DNA of 64,000 bases from a virus: positions 1-64,000 of the IMG/VR virus record IMGVR_UViG_3300031746_002125; one strand, written 5' to 3'. The notes under the pieces are model-generated. The model was not told where the DNA came from, searched no databases, and worked only from the letters and a program-made list of their open reading frames with translations. Positions within the stretch are counted from its first letter, which is position 1; every line of letters starts with the position of its first letter. Positions 1-61,522 of the stretch are shown here, piece by piece. The position numbers and the translations under genes are program-made.

Positions 1-110
1 GAATCTTTGCCGGATATAAATAAATCTACACTATCAGAGTTTGTCTCGAATCCTTTGATAAAAAGATCGAAAATATTCGCAACAAAATCTTTGCCAGACA
101 AGAAGAGATC
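1..110. repeat. Perfect ~110 bp direct repeat inside the adhesin gene, copy A
   Basis: The first 110 bases of the window recur without a mismatch at 3,257-3,366, about 3.26 kb away in the same reading frame. The identity covers several LFIxG units and both intervening linkers, so it is a recent duplication or conversion rather than convergent repeats. The copy may extend further left outside the window. Confidence 0.85.
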
Positions 111-3100
111 TGTATTAGCTATCTTTGTTTCATTTCCATGAACGAATAAATTTAATTCCTGCGACCCTATATTTTTACCAAATATTATTAAATCTATATT
201 TTTATTGTTTGCTTCGAAACCTTTTATAAATAGGTCTAGACTTTGGCTTTGTGAATCCTCTCCCGGTATAAATAAATCAATTAATTCGATTTGAGTATCT
301 TTGCCACGAACGAAGAGATTCAAATTATTAGTTTCTGAATCTTGCCCACCAACGAATAAATTTATATTATTATTAAAATTATTATGGCCAATAATTACCA
401 AATTCAAATTTTGAGAATTAGTATCTTTTCCATCTATAAAAAGATTACAATTATTATTAAAAGATTGATGTCCAAATACAAATAAGTCTATGTTGTCAGA
501 ATTCGTATCAAAACCAAGAATAATAAGATCTAGATTTTTATTTTCTGTATCTTTGCCGGAGATATACAAATTACAATTATTGTTTTGATTATCTTTGCCA
601 GAAATAAATAAATTAAGAAATGGATTTTCAGAATCATTGCCCAATATAAATAAACTTATATTATTTGTTTGCTGTTGATATCCATTGATAAATAGATCAA
701 TTAATACTGTTTGAGTATTTTTACCATTAATTATCAAGTCTATATTTTGATTATTTGTGTTAAAGCCTTCTATAAATAAGTCTAAGTTTTGATTTTGTGA
801 ATCCTTACCAAAAATTATTAGGTCAATATTTTGTGATTCAGAATTATGTCCATTAATAAATAGATCAATATCATTCGTAAATATTTCATGTCCAATAATC
901 GCTAGATCTAGATTTTCTGTATTTGAGTCTTTTCCTTGTATAAAAAGATCCAAAGATTCATTTGAGGATTCATATCCTGTAATTATTAAGTCAAGATTAT
1001 CAGTATTTATATCTCGCCCATTAATAAATAAATTTAATTGTTGTGATTCTGTCTCTTTCCCAGCAATAACCAGATCTATATTATCAGAATTTGTCTCAAA
1101 ACCTAAAATAAAGAGATCGAGAGACTGGCTGTTTGCTTGTTCTCCTATTATTATTAAATCTATTTGTTCAGATTGAGTCTCTTTTCCTTGAACAAACAAA
1201 TCGAGACCATTCGTTTGGCCATCAAAACTACTAACGAACAAGTCTATATTTTCATTTTTGGTATCGAAACCATTTATAAATAAATTTAAAATGGTATTAT
1301 CAATATCAATACCAAATGAACGTCTTATATTACTTGGATCAACGGATAAATTTATTTCATTAGAACCATCTAAATCATATCTCTTAAATATAGGAAATGA
1401 ATTTTGACCAAGGGGAAAAAATGTGCCAGTAAGATATAAATAATTTTGATGTTTATCTATAGTAAATGATATATCGGACAAAGATCCTAGCGGCGTACTC
1501 AAATCTATGATCGTTTCTATATTCGATCCATCTAGATTGGCTCTTTGAATTTTTTCACCAAAAGACCAATAAATTTTATTGTTTTCTGGATGTATTTTTA
1601 TTTGATTTATATAACAGTCTATTGAGGATAAAAATATTCCAGATGAAGAACCATCGAGATTACTTATTCCAATGTTTGTTGTGACATAGTCTTCAGTAAA
1701 AAATTGCCAATATAATTTATTGTTAATTTCATCAACCGCTGTAACACATGGGAAATTATCCGGCTGATTAATTATTGTTAATATATTATTGCCATCAAAA
1801 TCAGATCTAAAAATATTCTCAATTTCATCAGAATAGAATAAAAATCCACTACTATTATGTATACTGGGCCTATATCCCGACACTGGAATTATTGTTCTTA
1901 AAAATTTGCCGTCTATATTTGTGCTTTCTATTCCACTGGGATCACTAAAGAATATTTTATCATTAATTTTAGACACATTTAAATAATAAAAAATGTCAAA
2001 TTCGTTTAAAGACAATGAAAGGAATCGTAGATTTTTTCCATTAATTTTTGATTTATAAAGACTTGAATAATTATCTTTTTTATTTAAAAATGACCAATAC
2101 AACAAGGGTTCATTATTAATCTGTCTATGGCCATGAATGAAAAGATCTAATACACTTGTATTTGCCTGTTCACCAATTATGATTAAATCCAAATTATTAT
2201 TTTTAGATTCGTTTCCAATTATTATTAAATCAATGTTTTCGTTTTGCGCATCCTTGCCAAAAATAATAAGATCTAAGTTGTTTGTCTCGCTGTCTTTCCC
2301 GTGAACAAATAAATCTAATTCTTGATTTTTATTATCTTTTCCGTGTATAAATAGATTAATATCATTCGTAAATATTTCATGTCCAATAATCGCTAGATCT
2401 AGATTTTCTGTATTTGAGTCTTTTCCCTTAATAAATAGGTCTATGTTATTAGTTTTTGTATCTTTGCCAGACAAGAAAAGGTTTATGGTTTGGGTATTTG
2501 TTTCATTTCCCTTAATAAATAAATCAATTTGTTCAGTCTTATTATCTTTACCATGGATAAAGAGATCCAAACTATTAGTTTCGGAATCTTTTCCATCAAT
2601 AAATAAATCTACATCATTATTAAAATTATTATGACCAACAATTACTAAATTTAAATCTTGAGATGTTGTATCTTTTCCTCTTATAAAAAGATCTATATTA
2701 TTATTGAAATTATTATGGCCCGTAATTATTAAATCCAAATCCTGAGATACTATATTGTGTCCATGGATAAATAAATTTATGTCATTTGTAAATGTTTCAT
2801 GCCCAACAATATTAAGATCTATATTTTGAGTTTTTTGTTGATGCCCGTCTATAAATAAGTCAATTAAATTATTTTTATTATCTTTTCCAGGAATATATAG
2901 ATTAATATCCTGAACTTTTGTGTCTTGCCCCAAAATAAATAAGTTTAAATTACTGGATTGAGAATCTTTTCCATTAATAAAAAGATTAATATTTTGTGAT
3001 TCAGTCTCATTGCCTATAATAAAAAGATCAACATTATTTGTTGACGAACCCTTTCCATAAATAAATAAACCAAGTGATTCGGTTCGTATATCTTTACCAC

Positions 3101-4892
3101 GAATAGAAAGATCTATATTTTCAGAATTTATTTCAAAACCAAAAACAACAAGATCTAAATTTTTATTTTCTGTGTCTTTACCCGAAATATATAAATTACA
3201 AATATTGTTTTGATTATTTTTGCCATTTATGAATAAATTTATGTCATTATTTTTAGAATCTTTGCCGGATATAAATAAATCTACACTATCAGAGTTTGTC
3301 TCGAATCCTTTGATAAAAAGATCGAAAATATTCGCAACAAAATCTTTGCCAGACAAGAAGAGATCTATGGTTTGATTATTTGTCTCCAATCCCTTGATGA
3401 ATAGATCAATTTGTTCAGTCTGATTATTTTTCCCGGCAATAAAAAGGTCTATGTTATCAAAATTTATGTCAGAACCAAGAATAAATAAATCAAGAGATTG
3501 ATTGTTTGCTTGTTCCCCTCTTATTACTAAATCTATTTTTTCAGATTGGGTTTCTTTCCCGCGAACAAATAAATCGAGATCACTCGTTTGGCTGTCAAAA
3601 CTACTAACGAACAAGTCTATGTCATTGTTTTTTGTGTCGTACCCAACAATTATTAAGTTTAAATTATTATTTTCAGAAATTGGTCCTTTTATAAATAAAC
3701 CAAGAAAATTAGACGATGTATTTATGTTAGATATAAATAAAGTTAAACTATTGCTTTTGGAATCAAATCCATTTATAAAAAGATCTATATTATTATTGAA
3801 ATTATCTTTTCCAAAGACAAATAAATCTAAATTCTGTGATTTTGCATTTTTGCCCAAAATAATCAGGTCGATATCTCTGTTTTCAGAATTCTTTCCTGTT
3901 ATAAATAGATTTACGCTCTCGCTCTTTGTTTCATATCCCTTAATAGATAATAAAAGAATGGGGCTAGATAAGCCCATAGAATTAGTTCCGCCTGTTGTAA
4001 TAGCAACAAAACGGGTGTTTGGCGCAGGAATGCTGGTTTCACCGTCGTAATTACTTCCCCAGGCTACGATGGACCCGTCGCCCAGGAGACCCAGACTGTG
4101 GTACGCGCCCCCGGCGACGGCGATAAAACCACTGTTCGGCGCTGGGATGTCGGTTTGACCGTTCTCATTGTTTCCCCACGCCACGATGGACCCGTCGCCC
4201 AGGAGACCCAGACTGTGCCACAAGCCCGCCGCGACGGCGACGAAGCCCGTGTTGGGCGCGGGGACGTCGGTTTGACCGTAGAGATTCCATCCCCACGCCA
4301 CGATCGAGCCGTCGGTCTTGAGGCCCAGACCGTGCCACTTGCCCGCGGCTACGGCGATGAAACCCGCGTTGGGCGCGGGGACGTCGGTTTGACCGTAGAG
4401 ATTCCATCCCCACGCCACGATGGACCCGTCTGTCTTGATACCTAAACTATGAAAATAACCAGCGGCAATAGCAATAAAGCCGCTATTTGGCGATGGAATA
4501 TTGCATTGGCCATCTGTGTTTCTTCCCCACGCGACTATAGATCCATCGACCTTGAGACCCAGACTATGACTATAGCCTGCGGCGACGGCGACAAAGCCCG
4601 TATTGGGCGAAGGAACATTAAGTTGACCCCAATCGTTGCGACCCCATCCAACAACAGACCCATTATCTTTCAATCCTAGGCTATGGAAATATCCTTGGGC
4701 AATTGCGGCAAAATCAGAATTGGGAATAGGAACATTGGTTTGTCCGTAAGTATTATTTCCCCATGCTATAATTTTACTATTAATATTCGCGTGGCCGTGT
4801 ATGAAAAGATCTAAATTATTATTTATTGAAAGACTTGGTGTACCGACAGGATATCCTATAAAATCTAGGATACCTTTGAATCCTATAGCCAC
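1..4892 (-). CDS. Giant repeat adhesin / tail fibre (partial, C-terminus off the window)
   Basis: The frame is open from a GTG at 4892 (GGAG seven bases upstream) to the window edge, about 1,630 residues. Order: a short head containing LDFIGYPVG; about seven RCC1-like repeats of ~39 residues (VAWGxNxxGQT...HSLGL), residues ~35-300; dozens of ~20-residue repeats ending LDLFIxG; a non-repeat segment (1,296-2,118) with YWTD-propeller signatures such as NKIYWSFGEKI and RANLDGSN; then more LFIxG repeats to the edge. RCC1 and YWTD units form beta-propellers in known proteins, and a long surface fibre or receptor-binding protein fits the position after the fibre cluster. Function is inferred. The RCC1 section is much more GC-rich (~4,060-4,440) than its flanks. 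Confidence 0.85.
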   Translation of the reverse strand, partial: MAIGFKGILDFIGYPVGTPSLSINNNLDLFIHGHANINSKIIAWGNNTYGQTNVPIPNSDFAAIAQGYFHSLGLKDNGSVVGWGRNDWGQLNVPSPNTGFVAVAAGYSHSLGLKVDGSIVAWGRNTDGQCNIPSPNSGFIAIAAGYFHSLGIKTDGSIVAWGWNLYGQTDVPAPNAGFIAVAAGKWHGLGLKTDGSIVAWGWNLYGQTDVPAPNTGFVAVAAGLWHSLGLLGDGSIVAWGNNENGQTDIPAPNSGFIAVAGGAYHSLGLLGDGSIVAWGSNYDGETSIPAPNTRFVAITTGGTNSMGLSSPILLLSIKGYETKSESVNLFITGKNSENRDIDLIILGKNAKSQNLDLFVFGKDNFNNNIDLFINGFDSKSNSLTLFISNINTSSNFLGLFIKGPISENNNLNLIIVGYDTKNNDIDLFVSSFDSQTSDLDLFVRGKETQSEKIDLVIRGEQANNQSLDLFILGSDINFDNIDLFIAGKNNQTEQIDLFIKGLETNNQTIDLFLSGKDFVANIFDLFIKGFETNSDSVDLFISGKDSKNNDINLFINGKNNQNNICNLYISGKDTENKNLDLVVFGFEINSENIDLSIRGKDIRTESLGLFIYGKGSSTNNVDLFIIGNETESQNINLFINGKDSQSSNLNLFILGQDTKVQDINLYIPGKDNKNNLIDLFIDGHQQKTQNIDLNIVGHETFTNDINLFIHGHNIVSQDLDLIITGHNNFNNNIDLFIRGKDTTSQDLNLVIVGHNNFNNDVDLFIDGKDSETNSLDLFIHGKDNKTEQIDLFIKGNETNTQTINLFLSGKDTKTNNIDLFIKGKDSNTENLDLAIIGHEIFTNDINLFIHGKDNKNQELDLFVHGKDSETNNLDLIIFGKDAQNENIDLIIIGNESKNNNLDLIIIGEQANTSVLDLFIHGHRQINNEPLLYWSFLNKKDNYSSLYKSKINGKNLRFLSLSLNEFDIFYYLNVSKINDKIFFSDPSGIESTNIDGKFLRTIIPVSGYRPSIHNSSGFLFYSDEIENIFRSDFDGNNILTIINQPDNFPCVTAVDEINNKLYWQFFTEDYVTTNIGISNLDGSSSGIFLSSIDCYINQIKIHPENNKIYWSFGEKIQRANLDGSNIETIIDLSTPLGSLSDISFTIDKHQNYLYLTGTFFPLGQNSFPIFKRYDLDGSNEINLSVDPSNIRRSFGIDIDNTILNLFINGFDTKNENIDLFVSSFDGQTNGLDLFVQGKETQSEQIDLIIIGEQANSQSLDLFILGFETNSDNIDLVIAGKETESQQLNLFINGRDINTDNLDLIITGYESSNESLDLFIQGKDSNTENLDLAIIGHEIFTNDIDLFINGHNSESQNIDLIIFGKDSQNQNLDLFIEGFNTNNQNIDLIINGKNTQTVLIDLFINGYQQQTNNISLFILGNDSENPFLNLFISGKDNQNNNCNLYISGKDTENKNLDLIILGFDTNSDNIDLFVFGHQSFNNNCNLFIDGKDTNSQNLNLVIIGHNNFNNNINLFVGGQDSETNNLNLFVRGKDTQIELIDLFIPGEDSQSQSLDLFIKGFEANNKNIDLIIFGKNIGSQELNLFVHGNETKIANTDLFLSGKDFVANIFDLFIKGFETNSDSVDLFISGKD
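3257..3366. repeat. Perfect ~110 bp direct repeat inside the adhesin gene, copy B
   Basis: Second copy of the segment at 1-110. A further perfect repeat of about 65 bp links ~870-935 and ~2,362-2,429. Such blocks could let the array expand, contract or convert by homologous recombination. Confidence 0.85.
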
Positions 4893-41161: not shown

Positions 41162-41512
41162 TTATGTTAATAACAGACTTTTCTTGGGGGTTAAAATATG
41201 TCGTTCGCCCAAAGCCTTTTCAGAAATTTGTTTCCACGCATCGTTGTCGGTATCAACCACACCAAAAGATTTAATATGTTTTGTATTAATAAATTCTTTT
41301 TGACAAACCAAATAAAGGGGATTCATATCTTTTAATTGAGCAGCCGCCAAACCATCTTTACCACCTTCTCCTTTATGGGGGAATAAAACTAAAGATCTTT
41401 CTACGGGAATTATAGCATCGACAGTTATTAATTCTCTAAAATCATCCGGAGATTTATCAATCTCAAAAAATTTACTATCACCATCTTTGAAATCTACCCT
41501 ATACCAACTCAT
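41162..41512 (-). CDS. Hypothetical protein (116 aa)
   Basis: Start at MSWYRVDFKDGDSKFF (41512), after GGAAA. Contains VERSLVLFPHKGEGGKDG and LVCQKEFINTKHIKSFGVVD. No known family. An alternative GTG/ATG upstream would overlap the C39-like gene. Confidence 0.6.
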   Translation of the reverse strand: MSWYRVDFKDGDSKFFEIDKSPDDFRELITVDAIIPVERSLVLFPHKGEGGKDGLAAAQLKDMNPLYLVCQKEFINTKHIKSFGVVDTDNDAWKQISEKALGERHILTPKKSLLLT

Positions 41513-46013: not shown

Positions 46014-46522
46014 CTTTCTCTGTTTTTGATTTTTGAAATTGTTTGGGGTACTACTTTAAAAATATTACTAATTTCTTTTTGGGTTAAATATCCGTCTTCT
46101 AACAATCTATTAATTACTCTAATTTTCCAATCATTTAATTTTGCTCCGGGATTTTCTTCTCCAATTTTATAAAGCCAAATAGGGTCTTGAATACATCTCC
46201 CGTGCTTAACCATGTCCTTTTGATTGTTCTTATGGGTATCACATCTTAGATTTTCAATTAAATTATTTTTAGGGTTTCCATCGTTGTGACATATTTCCAT
46301 TCCTTGCGGGCAAGGATCGAAAAAGGATTCAAACATCAATCTATGTAGAAGAAAATTTCTTCCCCTATCATTATTATATAATCTGACATATAAATACCCG
46401 CCGCTTCCTATATATGGTTTAATAATTCTTTTTCTTGGGCTTTTCTTCCCTGCTATTCCTTTTACAAGAGAAGTCTCTGAAATTTGATATAGTCCTTCGT
46501 AGCCTGGAATATCTTTCCACAT
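45989..46522 (-). CDS. HNH homing endonuclease (NUMOD4-HNH-HTH)
   Basis: WKDIPGYEGLYQISETSLVK, LLHRLMFESFFDPCPQGMEI, CHNDGNPKNNLIENLRCD and HTH end (LEDGYLTQKEISNIFKVVPQ). TATAAT five bases before the ATG (CGTATAATTAGATATGTGG). It is the last leftward gene before the motif module. Confidence 0.93.
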   Translation of the reverse strand: MWKDIPGYEGLYQISETSLVKGIAGKKSPRKRIIKPYIGSGGYLYVRLYNNDRGRNFLLHRLMFESFFDPCPQGMEICHNDGNPKNNLIENLRCDTHKNNQKDMVKHGRCIQDPIWLYKIGEENPGAKLNDWKIRVINRLLEDGYLTQKEISNIFKVVPQTISKIKNRERWKHVSIN

Positions 46523-46813
46523 ATCTAATTATACGAATAAACGAGTAATTATTTTGAGAAAAGAGGGTGAATAGTGTGGTTCAAAGAATCTTGATTTATA
46601 CTTTGAAGACGATTTGATATCCGGCTTAGTCTTCGCCCCCAGCAGTTTTCGGACCATAGGCTTCGAATTATCGGACGGCATATAACTACCACACCCTTAT
46701 CGGACCTAATTGGCCAGACGCCAATTATAGGACCGCCCATTATCGGACGAGCATATAGAGAAGGTTATCGGGCTTATACTTATAGGACGTGGACGCGGGG
46801 AGGGAAAAAGATT

Positions 46814-46960
46814 ATGGGAGCACGGGATATAGGACTATACATTATGGGACGATGTGCCGCTCGTGCCGATGCCAAAAACATGCTCGGTTATCGGACGATA
46901 AAAATTTTTTATTTTCGTTTGCTTACCTGCGATTCTATTCTACAATTAGGTTGGCAATAG
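46814..46960 (+). CDS. Small ORF in motif module (48 aa)
   Basis: ATG after GGGGAGGGAAAAAG encodes MGARDIGLYIMGRCAARADA... The ribosome site is good, the product unremarkable. Motif copies fall in three frames across it, so codons follow the DNA motif rather than the reverse. Confidence 0.4.
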   Translation: MGARDIGLYIMGRCAARADAKNMLGYRTIKIFYFRLLTCDSILQLGWQ

Positions 46961-46979
46961 GGCCGACAAGGAGAAGAAA

Positions 46980-47126
46980 ATGGTACTAGGAATAACAATC
47001 GGAACGGGCGCGGTGGTGATGATGGTGATTATGATGATTAAGACCAGCTTAGAAAATGCTGGCAACACCTACGGGCGGCGGAGCGTTTGCGGACGTTCGG
47101 CTCGGTGGAACAGGAGGGTGCGATAA
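46980..47126 (+). CDS. Small membrane protein (48 aa)
   Basis: AAGGAGAAGAAA before the ATG; hydrophobic segment VLGITIGTGAVVMMVIMMI then a basic tail (RRSVCGRSARWNRRVR). Stop overlaps the next ATG (TAATG). Confidence 0.55.
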   Translation: MVLGITIGTGAVVMMVIMMIKTSLENAGNTYGRRSVCGRSARWNRRVR

Positions 47127-47203
47127 TGTTTACAATGATCGGACTAGGATTTCTCATGGTGGTTATCGGAGCGGTGAAGGTGTGGTGGGAATTATCGGAA
47201 TAA
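47126..47203 (+). CDS. Tiny membrane peptide (25 aa)
   Basis: ATG with AGGAGGGT upstream; MFTMIGLGFLMVVIGAVKVW... one hydrophobic span. Coupled to the preceding ORF by TAATG. Confidence 0.5.
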   Translation: MFTMIGLGFLMVVIGAVKVWWELSE

Positions 47204-47214
47204 AGGAGAGCTTT

Positions 47215-47370
47215 ATGTGGACGCTAGTTATCTGGACATCGCCGAACGACAGCGCATCCTACGATTATCGGACGAGAATGGAAGCGTTGGCTATCGGACG
47301 TAATTGCATCGACGCCTATGCAGTTGAATTATACGGACCTGACGGCGAGTATGAAGGATTTTCGGACTAG
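47215..47370 (+). CDS. Small soluble protein (51 aa)
   Basis: ATG after AAAGGAGAGCTTT; MWTLVIWTSPNDSASYDYRT... with EALAIGRNCIDAYAVELYG. Two motif copies code YRT and IGR. Function unknown. Confidence 0.55.
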   Translation: MWTLVIWTSPNDSASYDYRTRMEALAIGRNCIDAYAVELYGPDGEYEGFSD

Positions 47371-47381
47371 GAGGTGCTGTG

Positions 47382-47621
47382 ATGATGAAAGCAACACTTG
47401 AAGTTTTCTGGCCAAGCGACCCAACATTTTCGGACGCTGACAAGGTTTCGCGGTACGATAATCTTTGGGACGATTGTGTGATGATAGACGCGAGAATAGC
47501 AGCCCTTTGTGGTGGACACGCCATCGCGACACTATCGGACGGCTACCGGGTCGAATACATCTCGGACGATTGCGAGCCGACTGGTTATCGGACTAAAGGC
47601 GTACCATGTGAAACGGTCTGA
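47382..47621 (+). CDS. Hypothetical protein (79 aa)
   Basis: Start set at ATG 47382 (eight bases after AGGAGG). MMKATLEVFWPSDPTFSDAD... then YISDDCEPTGYRTKGVP. Not recognised. A terminator follows ten bases after its stop. Confidence 0.6.
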   Translation: MMKATLEVFWPSDPTFSDADKVSRYDNLWDDCVMIDARIAALCGGHAIATLSDGYRVEYISDDCEPTGYRTKGVPCETV

Positions 47622-47630
47622 TTATCGGAC

Positions 47631-47663
47631 GAAGGACCGGGCCGAATTATCGGCCCTTCTTTT
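47631..47663 (+). terminator. Intrinsic terminator in motif module
   Basis: GGGCCGA/TCGGCCC stem (7 bp) with loop ATTA, flanked by GAAGG/CTTC, then TTTT. One stem arm is part of a TTATCGG motif. Ends the first small-ORF operon. Confidence 0.75.
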
Positions 47664-47676
47664 GCGCTGATCGGTT

Positions 47677-47873
47677 TGGTCCTATAAAAATCACTGCTTG
47701 TAAAATCGTAACTTAACTGCGAATTATGGGACCAGGCATATATTACTTCGTTTATGTGCGTTTCCTGCGGGATGTTATCGAATCATGCAAATAATATCGA
47801 AGAATTCCTATAATAATTGAGACATTATCATTAAAAATCAACATTTTATTGGCCTATCCTCGTATAATATATT
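47677..47873 (+). repeat. ~200 bp module repeat, copy 1 (upstream of HNH gene)
   Basis: Shares with the copies at 49,073 and 49,823 an ordered set: GGTCCTATAA start, ATCGTAA..TAACTGC, TTATNGGACNNGG, ATATTACTTCG, GCG..TTCC, then TCATGC/AATAAT. This copy leads directly into the TATAAT box and start of the 47,874 homing gene. Confidence 0.7.
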
Positions 47874-48389
47874 ATGGGAACTATCCGGGAAATAAAGGTT
47901 ACAGGACGTAATTATGAATTATCGGTCCTTGTCGATGAAGAAGATTATCAGACGTTAAGGTTATGGGAATATGGTTTGTCCAGAATTATAGGACTTGATA
48001 CAACCTACATACAGACTTATAAAAAGGGCAAAAGGGGTTATCTCCATCGTCTTATTATGGGGGTTTCGGACGCGACAACGTCCATTTTCGTAGATCATAT
48101 TGACCATAATGGGCTTAATAATTCTAGGACCAACCTACGTATTACCAATAATAAGGGTAATCAGCGCAATTCGCGCAAACGATTATCGACAAAACGAACA
48201 AGCTCCTATAAAGGAGTTTATTTTTCTCACAATAATAAGATGAACCCCTGGTTAGCATCCATTCATCTATCGGACAGTAGAACACATCTGGGATATTATA
48301 GGACCGAAATAGAAGCGGCTCACGCCTATAATAAGGCCGCTATCGAGCATTTCGGCGACATGGCCAACCCGAACATTCTCGGACCATAA
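47874..48389 (+). CDS. HNH homing endonuclease with AP2 domain
   Basis: 171 residues. IREIKVTGRNYELSVLVDEE, HRLIMGVSDATTSIFVDHID plus HNGLNNSRTNLRI (HNH core) and an AP2-type DNA-binding end (SSYKGVYFSHNNKMNPWLAS, LGYYRTEIEAAHAYNKAAIE). Same family as 52,351 and 53,333. The DNA is full of TATNGGAC motifs that the relatives lack. TATAAT is five bases before the ATG (CGTATAATATATTATGGG). Confidence 0.93.
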   Translation: MGTIREIKVTGRNYELSVLVDEEDYQTLRLWEYGLSRIIGLDTTYIQTYKKGKRGYLHRLIMGVSDATTSIFVDHIDHNGLNNSRTNLRITNNKGNQRNSRKRLSTKRTSSYKGVYFSHNNKMNPWLASIHLSDSRTHLGYYRTEIEAAHAYNKAAIEHFGDMANPNILGP

Positions 48390-48417
48390 AATTTTTCAGA
48401 TTTTTATTATTTGGACC

Positions 48418-48446
48418 TTGACTTTTGTATGGTTCCCGCCTATACT
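48418..48446 (+). promoter_or_regulatory. Sigma-70 consensus-type promoter
   Basis: TTGACT, 17-base spacer, TATACT. It lies 29 bases past the homing-gene stop and serves the 48,502 gene. Confidence 0.75.
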
Positions 48447-48501
48447 CCTACAGTAGTACGGGACAACGAAATGATGTTTTTTTCGGACGGGGGAAAGGGC
48501 G

Positions 48502-48807
48502 ATGAAAAGGCCGCTATTATCAGACGACATGGTGGATATGAAGTTAGCTAGTCTGGAAAAATTGCAGTATCGCTTGGAATTAACGGGGCCGATAATGTTC
48601 TGGAAAGCAGAAGTGATCGGACCATTCGGCTCGGAGTTTTTCGGACGGTCCAGTAACGGGCCAACGACCGATAAAGCTATCGAGCGACTTAAATTGCAGC
48701 TTGAACGAATCGGGTTTATCGGACTACTGATTGAAAGCCCGATAATCGGAAAAGATTATTCGGACGACGATCTGTTATCGGACGAAGAAGTCCCTGACGA
48801 GTTATAG
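48502..48807 (+). CDS. Hypothetical protein of motif module (101 aa)
   Basis: GGGGGAAAGGGCG before ATG. MKRPLLSDDMVDMKLASLEK, then AEVIGPFGSEFFGRSSNGPT and an acidic end (DYSDDDLLSDEEVPDEL). The middle resembles the KALALAIAE-type small proteins that phages carry, but I cannot name a family. Confidence 0.65.
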   Translation: MKRPLLSDDMVDMKLASLEKLQYRLELTGPIMFWKAEVIGPFGSEFFGRSSNGPTTDKAIERLKLQLERIGFIGLLIESPIIGKDYSDDDLLSDEEVPDEL

Positions 48808-48826
48808 GACGATAAGGGGGTGTAAA

Positions 48827-49027
48827 GTGTTGCTGAAAAAAAGAACGTATTTCTTGACGAATGTTATCGGCGAATCTTGTTTGGTCCGAGTATTCGTTGC
48901 GACGGCAAACGCAAACATCGTCTTTATGGGACGCCAGAATTTCCTTCCGATAAGACGTGCCTTTTCCGAGCAAGGGGAAACGACATTAGCGGACGATGAC
49001 GAGGGCGAAGAGTGGAAAGACCGATAA
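48827..49027 (+). CDS. Hypothetical protein (66 aa)
   Basis: GTG start eight bases after AAGGGGG. MLLKKRTYFLTNVIGESCLV, then a charged end (DDDEGEEWKDR). Not recognised. Confidence 0.5.
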   Translation: MLLKKRTYFLTNVIGESCLVRVFVATANANIVFMGRQNFLPIRRAFSEQGETTLADDDEGEEWKDR

Positions 49028-49402
49028 ACTAGCGGGACAAAGAAGTTATAGGACTAGGGAACCGATCGGCCTTGGTCCTATAATTTGCGCCTACGGCACA
49101 GTTATAGGACTCCCTTATAATGTTAAAATCGTAATTAAACTGCTTTTTATAGGACGTGGCATATATTACTTCGCCTGCGAGCGTTTCCTTCGGGACATTC
49201 TAGGATCATGCCAATAATAACGAAACTGCCCATAATAATAAAGACATGCCGATTGAAAAACGATATATTATCAGACTAAAAGATTTTCTTGTCGGGCGAC
49301 TTGACTTCGGCGGTCGGCTTGCATATAATTCAATATGACCGAACGCGATAGCCTATAGTGTTATGGGCGAGCGTAAAGTCGATCCATTATAGGAGCTCCA
49401 AT
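49028..49402 (+). other. Intergenic stretch: repeat copy 2 and promoter
   Basis: No convincing gene. Holds the second copy of the ~200 bp repeat (from ~49,073 to ~49,268) and the TTGACT-17-TATAAT promoter at 49,301. No HNH sequence follows this copy, unlike copies 1 and 3. Confidence 0.7.
49301..49329 (+). promoter_or_regulatory. Sigma-70 consensus promoter
   Basis: TTGACT, 17 bases, TATAAT, 74 bases before the ATG at 49,403. The last bases of the spacer (CTTGCA/AGCA) are shared with the promoter at 50,156. Confidence 0.8.
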
Positions 49403-49735
49403 ATGTCGGCAACCGCAGTAGTTTCAAGCCCAGTAACCACCAGCAAAGTTCACGAAAAGGAATTTTTGACGACCGCGCAGGACTACGCGCGTGACCGCAA
49501 GGGCATAGATTGGCTATCGTCCCAACCCAACCCAGACGAGGCTATCGACCGCGTTATGAAGGTTATTGGCCGCCTTCAGAATATGGTTGCCAACGGTTCG
49601 GACTATACTCCAGCCGCGCAGCTCGGCTTCGGGTCCGCTAACGCCTCAACCATCGCGTCCGGTATTCTCGGCGCAGGCTTGACGGGTTCGCAGATTCGCA
49701 AGCTGTTCGCAACCGTAGGCAAGCCGAAGGCATAA
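49403..49735 (+). CDS. Hypothetical protein of motif module (110 aa)
   Basis: Start MSATAVVSSPVTTSKVHEKE at 49403 after AGGAGCTCCAAT; the frame is open further up but without a ribosome site. Contains DYARDRKGIDWLSSQPNPDE, LQNMVANGSDYTPAAQLG and GILGAGLTGSQIRKLFATVG. Ala/Gly-rich, less motif-dense than neighbours (only one TTCGGAC), with GC-rich codons. Expressed from the promoter at 49,301. Function unknown. Confidence 0.7.
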   Translation: MSATAVVSSPVTTSKVHEKEFLTTAQDYARDRKGIDWLSSQPNPDEAIDRVMKVIGRLQNMVANGSDYTPAAQLGFGSANASTIASGILGAGLTGSQIRKLFATVGKPKA

Positions 49736-49769
49736 TTTTCGGACCTCGACGACTTATCGAGGAACGAAT

Positions 49770-49808
49770 TATCGGACGGGAGACGCGGGTTTCTCGTCCG
49801 ATATTTTT
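49770..49808 (+). terminator. Terminator whose stem is made from the module motif
   Basis: TATCGGACG (49,770-49,778) pairs perfectly with CGTCCGATA (49,795-49,803), followed by TTTTT. The inner GAGA/TCTC extends the stem. So the motif in inverted orientation forms a transcription stop. Confidence 0.8.
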
Positions 49809-49822
49809 GCGCGGATTTATAT

Positions 49823-50000
49823 GGTCCTATAATTTTCACTGCATGGTAAATCGTAAAATAACTGCAATTATAGGACGTGGATTATATTAACTTCGTTTGT
49901 GCAAGATTTTCTAAGACATTCTCGGATAATACCAATAATATCAACTATGCCTATAATAAAGAGAACATATCGATTGAATAAATAGATATTATAGGAATCC
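49823..50000 (+). repeat. ~200 bp module repeat, copy 3
   Basis: Starts GGTCCTATAATTTTCACTGC and keeps ATCGTAAAATAACTGC, ATTATAGGACGTGG and ATTATATTAACTTCG in the same order as copies 1 and 2. Followed by a relic of the same HNH family that follows copy 1. Confidence 0.65.
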
Positions 50001-50129
50001 CATAATTTTTATTGGGTTCGGACGTATAATTATAGGACCGAAGAAGAAGCGGCAACAGCCTATAATAAAGCAGCTATCGAATTATTCGGACCTATTGCCT
50101 TCCTCAATATATTACCGGACCAAAAATAA
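49990..50129 (+). pseudogene. 3' relic of an HNH/AP2 homing gene
   Basis: Only the last ~32 codons remain readable: YRTEEEAATAYNKAAIELFG then PIAFLNILPDQK and a stop. This matches the end of the 47,874 protein (YRTEIEAAHAYNKAAIEHFG). The NUMOD and HNH parts are gone. The deletion joins repeat copy 3 to the relic. Confidence 0.75.
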
Positions 50130-50155
50130 TTTTTTTGATTTCTGGTTATAAGACC

Positions 50156-50184
50156 TTGACATTTCGGTTCTGCAAGCATATAAT
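50156..50184 (+). promoter_or_regulatory. Perfect sigma-70 consensus promoter
   Basis: TTGACA, 17 bases, TATAAT, an exact match to the E. coli consensus at all twelve positions. Drives the 50,212 ORF or the RNA beyond. Confidence 0.85.
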
Positions 50185-50211
50185 ATAATAGTATTTTCGG
50201 ACAAAAGAAGG

Positions 50212-50427
50212 TTGATCTGGACGAGTTTTCGGACGACGGGAAGATGGGCGATATGCGCACTTTTTCTTCTTATAGGACTAATTATTAGGACTACGATTTT
50301 ATCGGAGGTTCCATATAATTTCTGTCTTGGCATCGTATTATTCAAAGACTTATCGGGTGGTGCCAATAATCATTTTATTTTACCCAAAGGCTTGACTATC
50401 GTTGACTACGAGCATATAATTAGATAG
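50212..50427 (+). CDS. Putative membrane protein (71 aa)
   Basis: TTG start after AAAAGAAGG. One clear span (WAICALFLLIGLIIRTTILS) then KDLSGGANNHFILPKGLTIV. Its end overlaps the RNA promoter. Start codon and reality are uncertain. Confidence 0.45.
   Translation: MIWTSFRTTGRWAICALFLLIGLIIRTTILSEVPYNFCLGIVLFKDLSGGANNHFILPKGLTIVDYEHIIR
50392..50420 (+). promoter_or_regulatory. Dedicated promoter of the large structured RNA
   Basis: TTGACT, 17 bases, TATAAT, with a predicted start near 50,427 at the first helix of the RNA. No ORF with a ribosome site follows for more than 900 bases. Confidence 0.8.
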
Positions 50428-51160
50428 CCGAATGCGCAGCGACCCGATAACTTCGGGAACGGTCGATAATTCGACCCGATATAGGCTTATTATATGCCAT
50501 AAGCCCGCACGGTTCGGTTAGTCTGATAAGGGCGAGTAGCGCAAGGTAAAGTAGTTCTTTACTTGAAGCGCCAGCGAAGGGTTTTGTTATCGGCCCTGAC
50601 TTCGGGCAATGCCCGATAAAAGGTTCTCATTCGGACGGGAGCGTCCGATAAGGACGGAAGCCCGATAATAAGTCCGCGCTATCTAGGGCGCACTCCCTAG
50701 TGAGAGTCCGATAAGTTGTTCGGACAAGGGCGCAAGTCCCCTAGTCAGTCCCATAATCAATTCATGGAAGTCTCCCGACAAGAGCAGAATTAAAGTGGGG
50801 TCTCAACTGGTTATCGGCGGCGCGTCTGTCAACCCGAATAACTTGGGCGATAACTAAGTTCTTATCGGTCCAACGGATTCTCGAAGTATTATTGAAGCGA
50901 TACTCCTTCCATTGAAGCTATGGTCAAGTCTTGTGCAACGATTCGCTCGCGTAATTATCGGGTCTTGTAAGCAAGTCAAAGCTTACTTCGGTCTATTGTC
51001 GAGCGATAGTGTGAGACTTCAATCGCTGGTGGATGCCGCTTTCGGCTAAGGTCGATTGTTCGGGTTCGATAACTGGTCAATAATACTCAAACCAACTTTC
51101 AATTCAAAGGGCATGATTATCGGATGAAGTTTTGGTCCGAAAAGATTCTGCCCTTCTCGT
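50427..51160 (+). ncRNA. Large highly structured non-coding RNA
   Basis: About 700 nt without a convincing gene, beginning at its own sigma-70 promoter and ending just upstream of tRNA genes. Strong hairpins include GGCTTAT/ATAAGCC (~50,484), GTAAAG/CTTTAC, GCCC/GGGC with a TTCG-type loop, TCGGACG-GGAG-CGTCCGA, CTAGGG/CCCTAG, GGGCGCAAGTCCC with a GCAA loop, CAATCG/CGATTG and a final AAGGGCA/TGCCCTT (~51,107-51,157). Size, phage origin and tRNA neighbourhood fit the GOLLD and ROOL classes of giant phage RNAs, but I could not match a consensus, so it may be new. Bases 51,161-51,360 hold no gene I can support. Confidence 0.72.
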
Positions 51161-51360
51161 CCAATAACTCTCCAGTCCAAAAGCTACGACCCATAAATAA
51201 GGGCAAAAACACGGGAAAAGGTCAAAGTCCAAATAAAGAAAAACTGCCTGCAATTTTTTCGCAGAGTCAGAATCTTTTTTGGATCAATGAGATTTCCGGG
51301 GTCCGGCTCTTTTTAGAGCTCCTTGGGTTTGCGCCAGGATTCGCGGTATTATTGGATGTT

Positions 51361-51434
51361 TTCCGTATAAGTGTAATGGTAGCACACTTCTGGGCATACC
51401 GGAAGAAGTCTAGGTTCGACCCCTAGTACGGAAA
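51361..51434 (+). tRNA. tRNA with unusual anticodon loop
   Basis: Acceptor TTCCGTA/TACGGAA, D-arm around TAATGGTAG, T-arm CTAGG-TTCGACC-CCTAG, discriminator A, no CCA. The anticodon arm reads TTCTG-GGCATAC-CGGAA, which puts CAT in the anticodon place but G at 33 instead of U. Either a Met/Ile2-like tRNA with a strange loop or a decayed gene. Confidence 0.7.
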
Positions 51435-51465
51435 ATTATTATTGGGCTTCGTCGTATAATGGTTC

Positions 51466-51918
51466 ATGGGATCGGTCTGTCTAAAACACAACAAAGAAAG
51501 AGACGCTTCAAGGCATTGTCCAGAATGTCGCAAAGATTATACCCTTAGTGAAAAGGGACGTAAGGCGATTACGGAGTACGAAAATTCCAAAAAGAGAAAA
51601 GAGTCCAAAAAAAGAAACAGGTCAACCGATAAAACAAAGTACTCGGACGGACAAAGACAAAGGGAATACCTCAATACACCAGAAGGAAGGTTGAAGTACG
51701 GAGCAAGAAACTCTGTACATTACGCAATCAAAAGGGGTAACTTAACCAAGCTCCCCTGTCAAATATGTGGGAACCCAAAGTCCGAGGCCCATCACTATCT
51801 AGGTCATTCCAAGGAACATAGATTACATGTAGTGTTCCTCTGCAAAAAGCATCATTACCAAGCCGACCACGATCCGGCCTTTAACGAAACTCTCAAACCA
51901 GACGGCCTCATCGTCTAA
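51466..51918 (+). CDS. HNH endonuclease between tRNA genes
   Basis: 150 residues. CLKHNKERDASRHCPECRKD (zinc knuckle), a basic linker, and CQICGNPKSEAHHYLGHSKE with HVVFLCKKHHYQAD, an HNH-type core. TATAAT sits five bases before the ATG (CGTATAATGGTTCATGGG). Its start region begins immediately after the first tRNA (TTATTATTGG) and its last five codons and stop lie inside the tRNA-Glu gene. Confidence 0.85.
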   Translation: MGSVCLKHNKERDASRHCPECRKDYTLSEKGRKAITEYENSKKRKESKKRNRSTDKTKYSDGQRQREYLNTPEGRLKYGARNSVHYAIKRGNLTKLPCQICGNPKSEAHHYLGHSKEHRLHVVFLCKKHHYQADHDPAFNETLKPDGLIV

Positions 51919-51976
51919 TTGGCTAGGATAGTACCCTTTCAAGGTACAGATACGAGTTCGAGTCTCGTTGAGGCTA
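51904..51976 (+). tRNA. tRNA-Glu (anticodon TTC)
   Basis: Acceptor GGCCTCA/TGAGGCT (G-U at the end), D-loop TAATTGGCTAGGA, anticodon arm GTACC-CTTTCAA-GGTAC with TTC, T-arm ACGAG-TTCGAGT-CTCGT, discriminator A, CCA not encoded. The first 15 bases are shared with the 3' end of the HNH gene. Confidence 0.9.
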
Positions 51977-52015: not shown

Positions 52016-52183
52016 ATGAAAGTAGTTATGTCAGTGAATGTAGGAAAATACGGAGAGGGCAAGGTAGTTGAAATTGTCCAAGCGGCTTCGGACTGGGTAA
52101 GGACCAAGAAAGGAACGTATCTGCAAAAGGACTTCGTTCGAGAAATTGGAGGAAATTCGATAGGGAAGGAAGTTGTGATCTAG
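52016..52183 (+). CDS. Small hypothetical protein (55 aa)
   Basis: AAGAGGAGG before the ATG. MKVVMSVNVGKYGEGKVVEI, then LQKDFVREIGGNSIGKEVVI. Compact beta-type protein, not recognised; lies between two tRNA-like genes. Confidence 0.6.
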   Translation: MKVVMSVNVGKYGEGKVVEIVQAASDWVRTKKGTYLQKDFVREIGGNSIGKEVVI

Positions 52184-52206
52184 AGTCGCGTTCCGTCCGC
52201 GATTCG

Positions 52207-52320
52207 TTTGCTGTGAGTGTGTGTCGGAGTCATAATTTAGATTCCGGAAGGATAGACACGTCACGCGGTCGGGCTCCGTACCGACCAGTGAAATTAGTTG
52301 TTCGATTCAACTACAGCAAA
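52207..52320 (+). tRNA. tRNA-like cloverleaf with expanded D-arm
   Basis: 8-bp acceptor TTTGCTGT/ACAGCAAA and a T-arm AGTTG-TTCGATT-CAACT are clear. A hairpin GGTCGG/CCGACC with loop GCTCCGTA could be the anticodon arm (CCG, Arg). The D-arm place holds an ~50-base nested hairpin (GTGTGTC...GACAC enclosing GGAGTC/GATTCC). Total 114 bases. Either an unusual tRNA or a tRNA-mimic RNA. Confidence 0.5.
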
Positions 52321-52350
52321 TTATTATTGGACAAGTTAGTATAATGTCTC

Positions 52351-57027: not shown

Positions 57028-57124
57028 TGGCCGTTAGCTTAAAGCTTCCGAATGGTACGCCCATCGGACGGTAAAGCCTCGGATGATTACCGGGAGATTA
57101 TGGGTTCAAATCCCATACGGCCAA
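57028..57124 (+). tRNA. tRNA-Ile (GAT) with inserted D-loop
   Basis: Acceptor TGGCCGT/ACGGCCA, D-stem GCTT/AAGC, anticodon arm CTCGG-ATGATTA-CCGGG giving GAT with U33, variable AGATT, T-arm ATGGG-TTCAAAT-CCCAT. The D-loop is about 33 bases instead of ~10, holding a small hairpin CCGAATGG/CCCATCGG. Otherwise fully paired. Confidence 0.7.
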
Positions 57125-61453: not shown

Positions 61454-61522
61454 TTAGCTTAGTCTGGTTAAAGCGCGATTCTTATAAAATCGAGACCAAT
61501 GGTTCAAATCCATTACGGCCTA
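61448..61522 (+). tRNA. tRNA-Ile (TAT) with unpaired 5' acceptor strand
   Basis: D-stem GCTT/AAGC with loop AGTCTGGTTA, anticodon arm CGATT-CTTATAA-AATCG (TAT), variable AGACC, T-arm AATGG-TTCAAAT-CCATT and 3' strand ACGGCCT are perfect. The 5' strand TGTTAAT does not pair; it encodes the end of the 61,223 gene. A decayed gene, or a tRNA repaired or edited after transcription. Confidence 0.6.

What the first reader, a model, noticed from the sequence alone, without database searches (positions are those of the whole stretch)
50392..51160. Promoter-driven ~700 nt structured RNA next to tRNAs, possibly a new giant phage RNA
A TTGACT-17-TATAAT promoter at 50,392-50,420 leads into about 700 bases with no supported ORF but many strong hairpins, several capped by GNRA- or UUCG-type loops, and a multistem closing at ~51,157. 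Giant phage RNAs GOLLD and ROOL are similar in size and also lie near tRNAs, but no consensus could be matched here. Several stems contain the module motif as an inverted pair (TCGGACG/CGTCCGA).
Basis: partly seen in the sequence, partly recalled or inferred. Interest (0 to 1): 0.88.

Follow-up and report, generated by a model that had tools for sequence, protein, structure and literature searches.

The report
New large structured phage RNA family
Next to its tRNA genes this uncultivated phage carries a roughly 750-base RNA gene that codes for no protein; related phages carry at the same spot RNAs of about 1,000 bases whose folds are clearly kept by evolution and match no catalogued RNA family, so it appears to be a new kind of very large phage RNA of unknown function.

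Summary
A TTGACT-17-TATAAT promoter (50392-50420) leads into about 750 nt with no convincing ORF and a strong fold (MFE z -3.7 to -5.2), closed by GGGCGAG/CUCGUCC at 50530/51156 (p 0.99). The GNRA/UUCG caps do not appear in the best fold.

A conserved 110-aa gene just upstream (49403-49735) led to 16 further loci in IMG/VR phages, with a noncoding stretch of about 0.75-1.1 kb downstream on the same strand. Eight diverged RNAs align over about 1 kb: 223 pairs, 102 with both-side changes (43.5 expected), 12% of gaps multiples of three. In the syntenic relative G005 and its near-twin L141, 18 compensatory changes occur against 2.5 expected. Rfam gives only tRNAs. Covariance models link G005, L141, G022 and G028 to the main group; an nhmmer profile links G012 and G032.

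The window's own copy gives no significant CM hit. It is placed by synteny, fold, tRNA neighbours and shared short motifs.

Unexpectedly, in all 14 phages tested the 3 kb upstream of the gene carry 4-35 sense copies of RTTATNGGAC; the RNAs are rich in its complement. Function is inferred, not shown.

The parts
50425..51180 (+). Large structured noncoding RNA. The 5' end is inferred from the promoter and the first paired base; the 3' end is approximate (last closing helix ends at 51162)
   Evidence: MFE z -5.2 and -3.7; helices and probabilities; no ORF over 45 aa; positional homologues with covariation
50392..50420 (+). sigma-70-type promoter TTGACT-17-TATAAT of the RNA
   Evidence: the first helix of the predicted fold starts at 50425, right after it
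50156..50184 (+). Perfect sigma-70 consensus promoter TTGACA-17-TATAAT, second possible start upstream of the RNA
50530..51162 (+). Long-range helix GGGCGAG (50530-50536) / CTCGTCC (51156-51162) closing the central and 3' domains
   Evidence: p 0.99
50425..50520 (+). 5' domain: closing stem with three hairpins (50443-50457, 50461-50476, 50484-50505)
   Evidence: p 0.91-0.99
49403..49735 (+). 110-aa gene always found just upstream of the RNA in relatives; unknown family, predicted all-helical
   Evidence: homologues in 13 of 43 related phages at E 7e-58 to 3e-10, alignment; no Pfam, PHROG, PDB or fold match; model pLDDT 81.5
49301..49329 (+). Promoter TTGACT-17-TATAAT of the 110-aa gene
   Evidence: sequence; a TTGAC-type promoter with 17-18 nt spacer lies 245-400 nt upstream of the matched start of the gene in 12 of 13 homologues
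49770..49803 (+). Terminator-like hairpin after the 110-aa gene (15 pairs, then T-run), so that in this phage the RNA is probably a separate transcription unit
49805..50130 (.). Relic of an HNH/AP2 endonuclease unit inserted between gene and RNA
   Evidence: 49805-49983 matches 47660-47838 at 74%, 50029-50080 matches the intact HNH gene at 48295-48346 at 87%
46660..50390 (+). Field of the sense-strand 9-mer RTTATNGGAC across small ORFs; it stops at the RNA
   Evidence: 6.2 per kb on + against 0.77 on -; 0.04 per kb in the first 46.5 kb of the record
51360..51435 (+). tRNA-Met directly downstream of the RNA
51904..51976 (+). tRNA-Glu

Best explanation
The feature is a gene for a large, independently folding noncoding RNA, and belongs to a previously uncatalogued family of about 0.75-1.1-kb RNAs in a lineage of uncultivated tailed phages. 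SHOWN by comparison: a fixed order (motif-rich block of small genes, 110-aa gene, RNA, often a tRNA), all on one strand; selection on RNA secondary structure in the relatives; no coding of protein. SHOWN in the window: the sigma-70-type promoters, the stable fold, the place in that order. INFERRED: host RNA polymerase transcribes the RNA, alone in this phage (own promoter, terminator after the gene) and together with the 110-aa gene in relatives, where only about 25-60 nt separate them; the 3' end may be set by tRNA processing. INFERRED, mechanism committed to at about 0.4: it works as a stable architectural RNA in the infected cell, as GOLLD and ROOL are thought to, presenting many copies of the short RTTATNGGAC element and its complement in its helices and junctions.
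For: Gene linkage: the 110-aa gene occurs in 13 of 43 related phages, plus H126, H130 and L141. The covariance model finds the RNA in 10 of 25 records, all carrying the gene; the records of that set without the gene have no hit. Structure: alignment A5 of eight RNAs, 223 pairs in 35 helices, 93% of cells paired, 102 pairs with both-side changes (shuffled 43.5 sd 4.3; slid structures 18-33). Closest syntenic relative: the single-sequence fold of G005 tested on its 87%-identical twin L141 gives 18 compensatory pairs against 2.5 expected and 29 broken against 54; five neighbouring ORFs, the 110-aa gene among them, are shared with the window block. Non-coding: 12% of pairwise gaps are multiples of three, no shared open frame. 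Family coherence: CM R1 finds G005 (E 9.5e-5), L141 (0.0015), G022 (0.0025); R2 finds G028 (1.8e-7); nhmmer finds the 3' domain in G022, G012 and G032 (7.7e-16 to 2e-11). Window copy: fold, promoters, tRNAs, motif signature (5 TTATNGG, 7 CCNATAA, 4 GTCCNATA against 0.1-0.2 expected each). Not in Rfam 15 and no DNA match in annotated phages or plasmids.
Against: The window copy itself has no close homologue, so its own pairs cannot be tested for covariation. CM hits to it are weak and not consistent in place (3.1 bits at 50674-50872 with R1, 6.2 bits at 50437-50667 with R2, only 4.7 bits and E 8.5 over the whole window with R3), and nhmmer gives none. The same holds for G041. Other windows nearby and the opposite strand fold almost as well. 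No expression data exist for any member. Nothing here tests the mechanism; no oligomerisation or protein partner is shown. Several members are fragments, so absence is uncertain.
Confidence: 0.78

Rival explanations
1. The window copy is a different noncoding RNA, or a decayed one, that merely occupies the same slot between the 110-aa gene and the tRNAs; only the relatives carry the new RNA family.
For: No significant CM or profile score for the window copy; an HNH relic lies between gene and RNA; RNA shorter (about 750 against about 1,000 nt).
Against: The 110-aa gene and four flanking ORFs are shared with G005, whose RNA the CM does join to the family; strong fold with its own promoters; the same short sense and antisense motifs at about 20-50 times expectation; other true members are equally diverged, as G012 and G032 fail the central-domain CM and are caught only through the 3' domain.
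Confidence: 0.2
2. The stretch is the structured 3' untranslated region or leader of neighbouring mRNAs (cis-acting), not a separate RNA gene.
For: In relatives the RNA starts only about 25-60 nt after the 110-aa stop codon and the promoter lies upstream of the gene, so the primary transcript probably includes the gene.
Against: A 1-kb element with 35 helices exceeds any cis-regulatory leader known to me; in the window the gene is followed by a terminator-like hairpin and the RNA has its own promoters.
Confidence: 0.15
3. It is a mobile-element RNA: group I/II intron, HEARO/omega-type RNA of an HNH nuclease, or part of a homing-endonuclease unit.
For: HNH/AP2 endonuclease genes and relics surround it.
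Against: No Rfam hit to introns, HEARO or other ribozymes at E<=5 on the window copy or E<=1 on the relatives; the relatives keep the RNA at the same site beside the same non-nuclease gene; the nearby nucleases are HNH_3/AP2 or a phrog_2340-type endonuclease.
Confidence: 0.04
4. The structure is a by-product of the short motif and its complement repeated in this block, without an RNA function.
For: TTATNGG and CCNATAA are strongly over-represented in the block and can pair with each other.
Against: The field itself, with as many motifs, does not fold unusually (z -1.7 to +0.7 for windows starting at 46400-49100); helices of the relatives covary far beyond these motifs.
Confidence: 0.04

Closest known systems
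GOLLD RNA (Rfam RF02032)
   Same: Phage or prophage RNA, often over 800 nt, elaborate secondary structure, often near tRNA islands, function unknown (PMC12286853)
   Different: No GOLLD match at the cut-off in 25 of these phages, best chance hit 7.5 bits against a cut-off of 150, and none by cmscan at the RNA loci; here the RNA is tied to a specific 110-aa gene and a motif field
ROOL RNA
   Same: Large ornate phage RNA near tRNA islands, no known protein partner, function unknown (PMC12286853)
   Different: No match by cmscan; most relatives here are longer than the 659-nt ROOL of that paper
OLE RNA
   Same: Large ornate RNA that works with small proteins (PMC12286853, PMC12054373)
   Different: Bacterial, not phage; no match
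HEARO RNA
   Same: Large RNA near HNH genes (own knowledge)
   Different: No match; nearby HNH proteins match HNH_3/AP2 and phrog_2340

Membership tests
GOLLD | Score above the gathering cut-off of RF02032 | tested here: not met
   (25 phage records, G000 included)
GOLLD | Large ornate RNA in a phage near tRNAs | tested here: met
ROOL | Match to the Rfam ROOL model | tested here: not met
   cmscan against all 4227 families: none at E<=5 (window copy) or E<=1 (13 relatives)
ROOL | Homo-oligomeric RNA-only nanocage | not testable with these tools
   needs native gels or cryo-EM
New family (110-aa-gene-linked RNA) | Directly downstream of the 110-aa gene on the same strand | tested here: met
   window 49403-49735 then 50425-51180 with an HNH relic between
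New family (110-aa-gene-linked RNA) | Sequence-structure similarity to the central domain of the family | tested here: inconclusive
   window copy: 3.1, 6.2 and 4.7 bits with R1, R2, R3; met for G005, L141, G022, G028
New family (110-aa-gene-linked RNA) | Preceded by the RTTATNGGAC field | tested here: met
New family (110-aa-gene-linked RNA) | Compensatory base changes in the window copy | not testable with these tools
   no close homologue of the window copy was found; the feature is met for relatives
HEARO / group I and II introns | Rfam match | tested here: not met

The most novel reading that the evidence does not exclude
The giant RNA and the upstream field of RTTATNGGAC sites form one system: the RNA carries the complement GUCCNAUAA, near-invariant in the group-1 RNAs and lying partly in a helix without covariation support, together with copies of the motif itself. 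It acts in trans on the motif-bearing transcripts or genome segment, by pairing with them or by competing for a factor that reads the motif, and so controls this block of the phage. No such pairing of a giant RNA with a repeated-motif gene field is known to me.
Probability: 0.25. Interest if true: 0.93.

Novelty: new variant of a known kind. Interest (0 to 1): 0.84.

Why it matters
Very large structured RNAs of phages are few (GOLLD and ROOL are the main ones), their functions are unknown, and both form RNA-only cages (PMC12286853). A further unrelated family of up to about 1.1 kb, with over 100 covarying pairs, a fixed protein-gene neighbour and a repeated-motif block beside it, adds an independent case. 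The linked gene and motif give concrete handles on what such RNAs do, which the known families lack.

Tried and rejected
Blastn of the window RNA against annotated phages, plasmids and 43 related phage records gave only chance hits of 11-28 nt. Alignment A3 had three sequences on the wrong strand and was discarded; A5 replaced it. The first protein alignment A1 used a wrong frame and was replaced by A2. Two degenerate patterns matched many contigs; 160 loci screened by profile and gene held no new member. A window-specific hairpin pattern found nothing. No member of the gene family or RNA was found in the 84,980-species genome collection. The 110-aa protein gave no function: no Pfam or PHROG match worth the name, no PDB sequence match, no fold match. 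GOLLD was tested directly and rejected. I considered a DnaA-box reading of the motif (TTATNCACA, own knowledge, shares only the first half) and set it aside. A literature search for the motif strings listed only unrelated papers among its best hits.

Full report
WHAT WAS CHECKED. The window is part of a 72,449-base IMG/VR phage record. The promoter TTGACT-17-TATAAT is at 50392-50420 and a perfect one at 50156-50184. The following 750 nt hold no ORF over 45 aa and fold to -263 kcal/mol, z -5.2 with 20 shuffles and -3.7 with 25. A long-range helix GGGCGAG/CUCGUCC (50530/51156) with p 0.99 closes most of the molecule, and a 5' domain with three hairpins precedes it. The structure claim alone is not decisive: the minus strand has z -4.9 and a few other windows nearby reach -3 to -4.

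RFAM. The whole window at gathering scores gives tRNAs only. The RNA region at E<=5 gives one sub-threshold chance hit upstream of it. GOLLD searched directly in 25 related records: nothing near its cut-off.

FINDING RELATIVES. DNA similarity found none. The terminase led to 52 related loci in IMG/VR. One record, G005, showed the same block: small ORFs dense in TTATCGGAC, a homologue of the 110-aa gene, then a 1.06-kb noncoding stretch with a very stable fold. The 110-aa gene family was then found in 13 of 43 records, and pattern and alignment scans added H126, H130 and L141. In these loci the gene is followed on the same strand by roughly 1 kb of GC-richer sequence without a shared ORF.

COVARIATION. 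Eight diverged members (G026, G020, G037, G039, G043, G007, G016, H130) align over about 1 kb. The consensus has 223 pairs in 35 helices, 93% of cells paired, 102 pairs with changes on both sides against 43.5 (sd 4.3) in shuffles and 18-33 in slid structures. Only 12% of pairwise gaps are multiples of three and no open frame is shared. This is a structured RNA, not a coding region. Cmscan on 13 loci gives tRNAs and one sub-threshold hit.

TYING IN THE DIVERGED MEMBERS. A covariance model of the central domain (R1, 210 positions) finds G005 at E 9.5e-5, L141 at 0.0015 and G022 at 0.0025. The iterated model R2 finds G028 at 1.8e-7. A plain profile finds the 3' domain in G022, G012 and G032 at 7.7e-16 to 2e-11. 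In 25 records R3 finds the RNA in 10, all with the gene; records without the gene have none. G005 and L141 are about 87% identical: the fold predicted from G005 alone shows 18 compensatory changes in L141 against 2.5 expected from random placement, and 29 broken pairs against 54.

THE WINDOW COPY. It shares with G005 the 110-aa gene and four further ORFs of the block, the place between that gene and tRNAs, a strong fold, and promoters of the type found upstream of the gene in 12 of 13 homologues. It also has the family's short elements: TTATNGG 5, CCNATAA 7, GTCCNATA 4, against 0.1-0.2 expected each. But its CM scores are not significant (3.1, 6.2 and 4.7 bits). Membership is therefore likely, not proven. 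In this phage a terminator-like hairpin (49770-49803) and an HNH relic separate gene and RNA, so the RNA is probably its own transcription unit; in group 1 it begins about 25-60 nt after the gene.

THE MOTIF FIELD. In all 14 phages tested the 3 kb upstream of the gene hold 4-35 copies of RTTATNGGAC on the sense strand and 0-4 on the other; in the stretch beyond the RNA there is one copy in the window phage and none in the others, although that stretch is short or absent in a few records. In the window phage the density is 6.2 per kb in 46.5-50.39 kb against 0.04 in the first 46.5 kb. The motif lies across ORFs in different frames (YRT, LSD, IGP), so the nucleotides are selected. The RNAs are rich in the complement: GTCCNATA 29 against 1.2 expected, CCNATAA 35 against 2.9, and in the sense form TTATNGG 57 against 6.3, at recurrent alignment columns. 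This link is new to me and unexplained.

MECHANISM. Shown: conserved structure in the relatives, conserved neighbourhood, promoters, no coding. Inferred: a stable folded RNA made from host-type promoters. I commit, at about 0.4, to an architectural RNA comparable in manner to GOLLD and ROOL, which are also large phage RNAs near tRNA islands of unknown function and form RNA-only cages (PMC12286853). The alternative that it acts on the motif-bearing block is given 0.25. The linked 110-aa protein is all-helical with pLDDT 81.5 and matches no known family or fold; it may be a partner, untested.

NOVELTY. No Rfam family, no annotated phage or plasmid, and no prokaryote genome searched was found to contain it. 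It is a new family within the known kind of large ornate phage RNAs.

Noticed in passing
46660-50390; also the 3 kb upstream of the 110-aa gene in 13 related phages: Field of a sense-strand 9-mer RTTATNGGAC, 4-35 copies per 3 kb, crossing ORFs in different reading frames, about 150 times denser than in the first 46.5 kb of the window phage. Function unknown.
   Followed up: partly
47660-47838, 49124-49247, 49805-49983: Three copies of a leader of up to about 180 nt at 74-78% identity; the first precedes an intact HNH/AP2 gene (47874-48389), the third a relic of one (50029-50127): a mobile nuclease unit with its own leader.
   Followed up: partly
52183-52350: Structured noncoding stretch (z -3.3 for the 400-nt window starting at 52100) that ends like a tRNA (TTTGCTG...CAGCAAA with a T-arm-like hairpin) but is not called by ARAGORN or cmscan.
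   Followed up: no
57028-57124 and 61454-61515: tRNA matches by cmscan that ARAGORN does not call; possibly atypical or interrupted tRNAs.
   Followed up: no
L100 518-591 (G041); L141 about 3818-3930 and G005 about 41245-41345: Unusual tRNA-like genes right after the RNA: one with a four-base anticodon (acaa), others not recognised by ARAGORN although acceptor ends and T-arm are visible.
   Followed up: no
1-4600: AT-rich stretch of many diverged repeats of itself (for example 1-111 identical to 3256-3366; 4016-4321 83% identical to 4133-4438).
   Followed up: no
51145-51153 with 51267-51275: AAGATTCTG in the last hairpin of the RNA is perfectly complementary to CAGAATCTT just before a T-run downstream; could be an alternative 3' fold or attenuator (seen by eye).
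   Followed up: no
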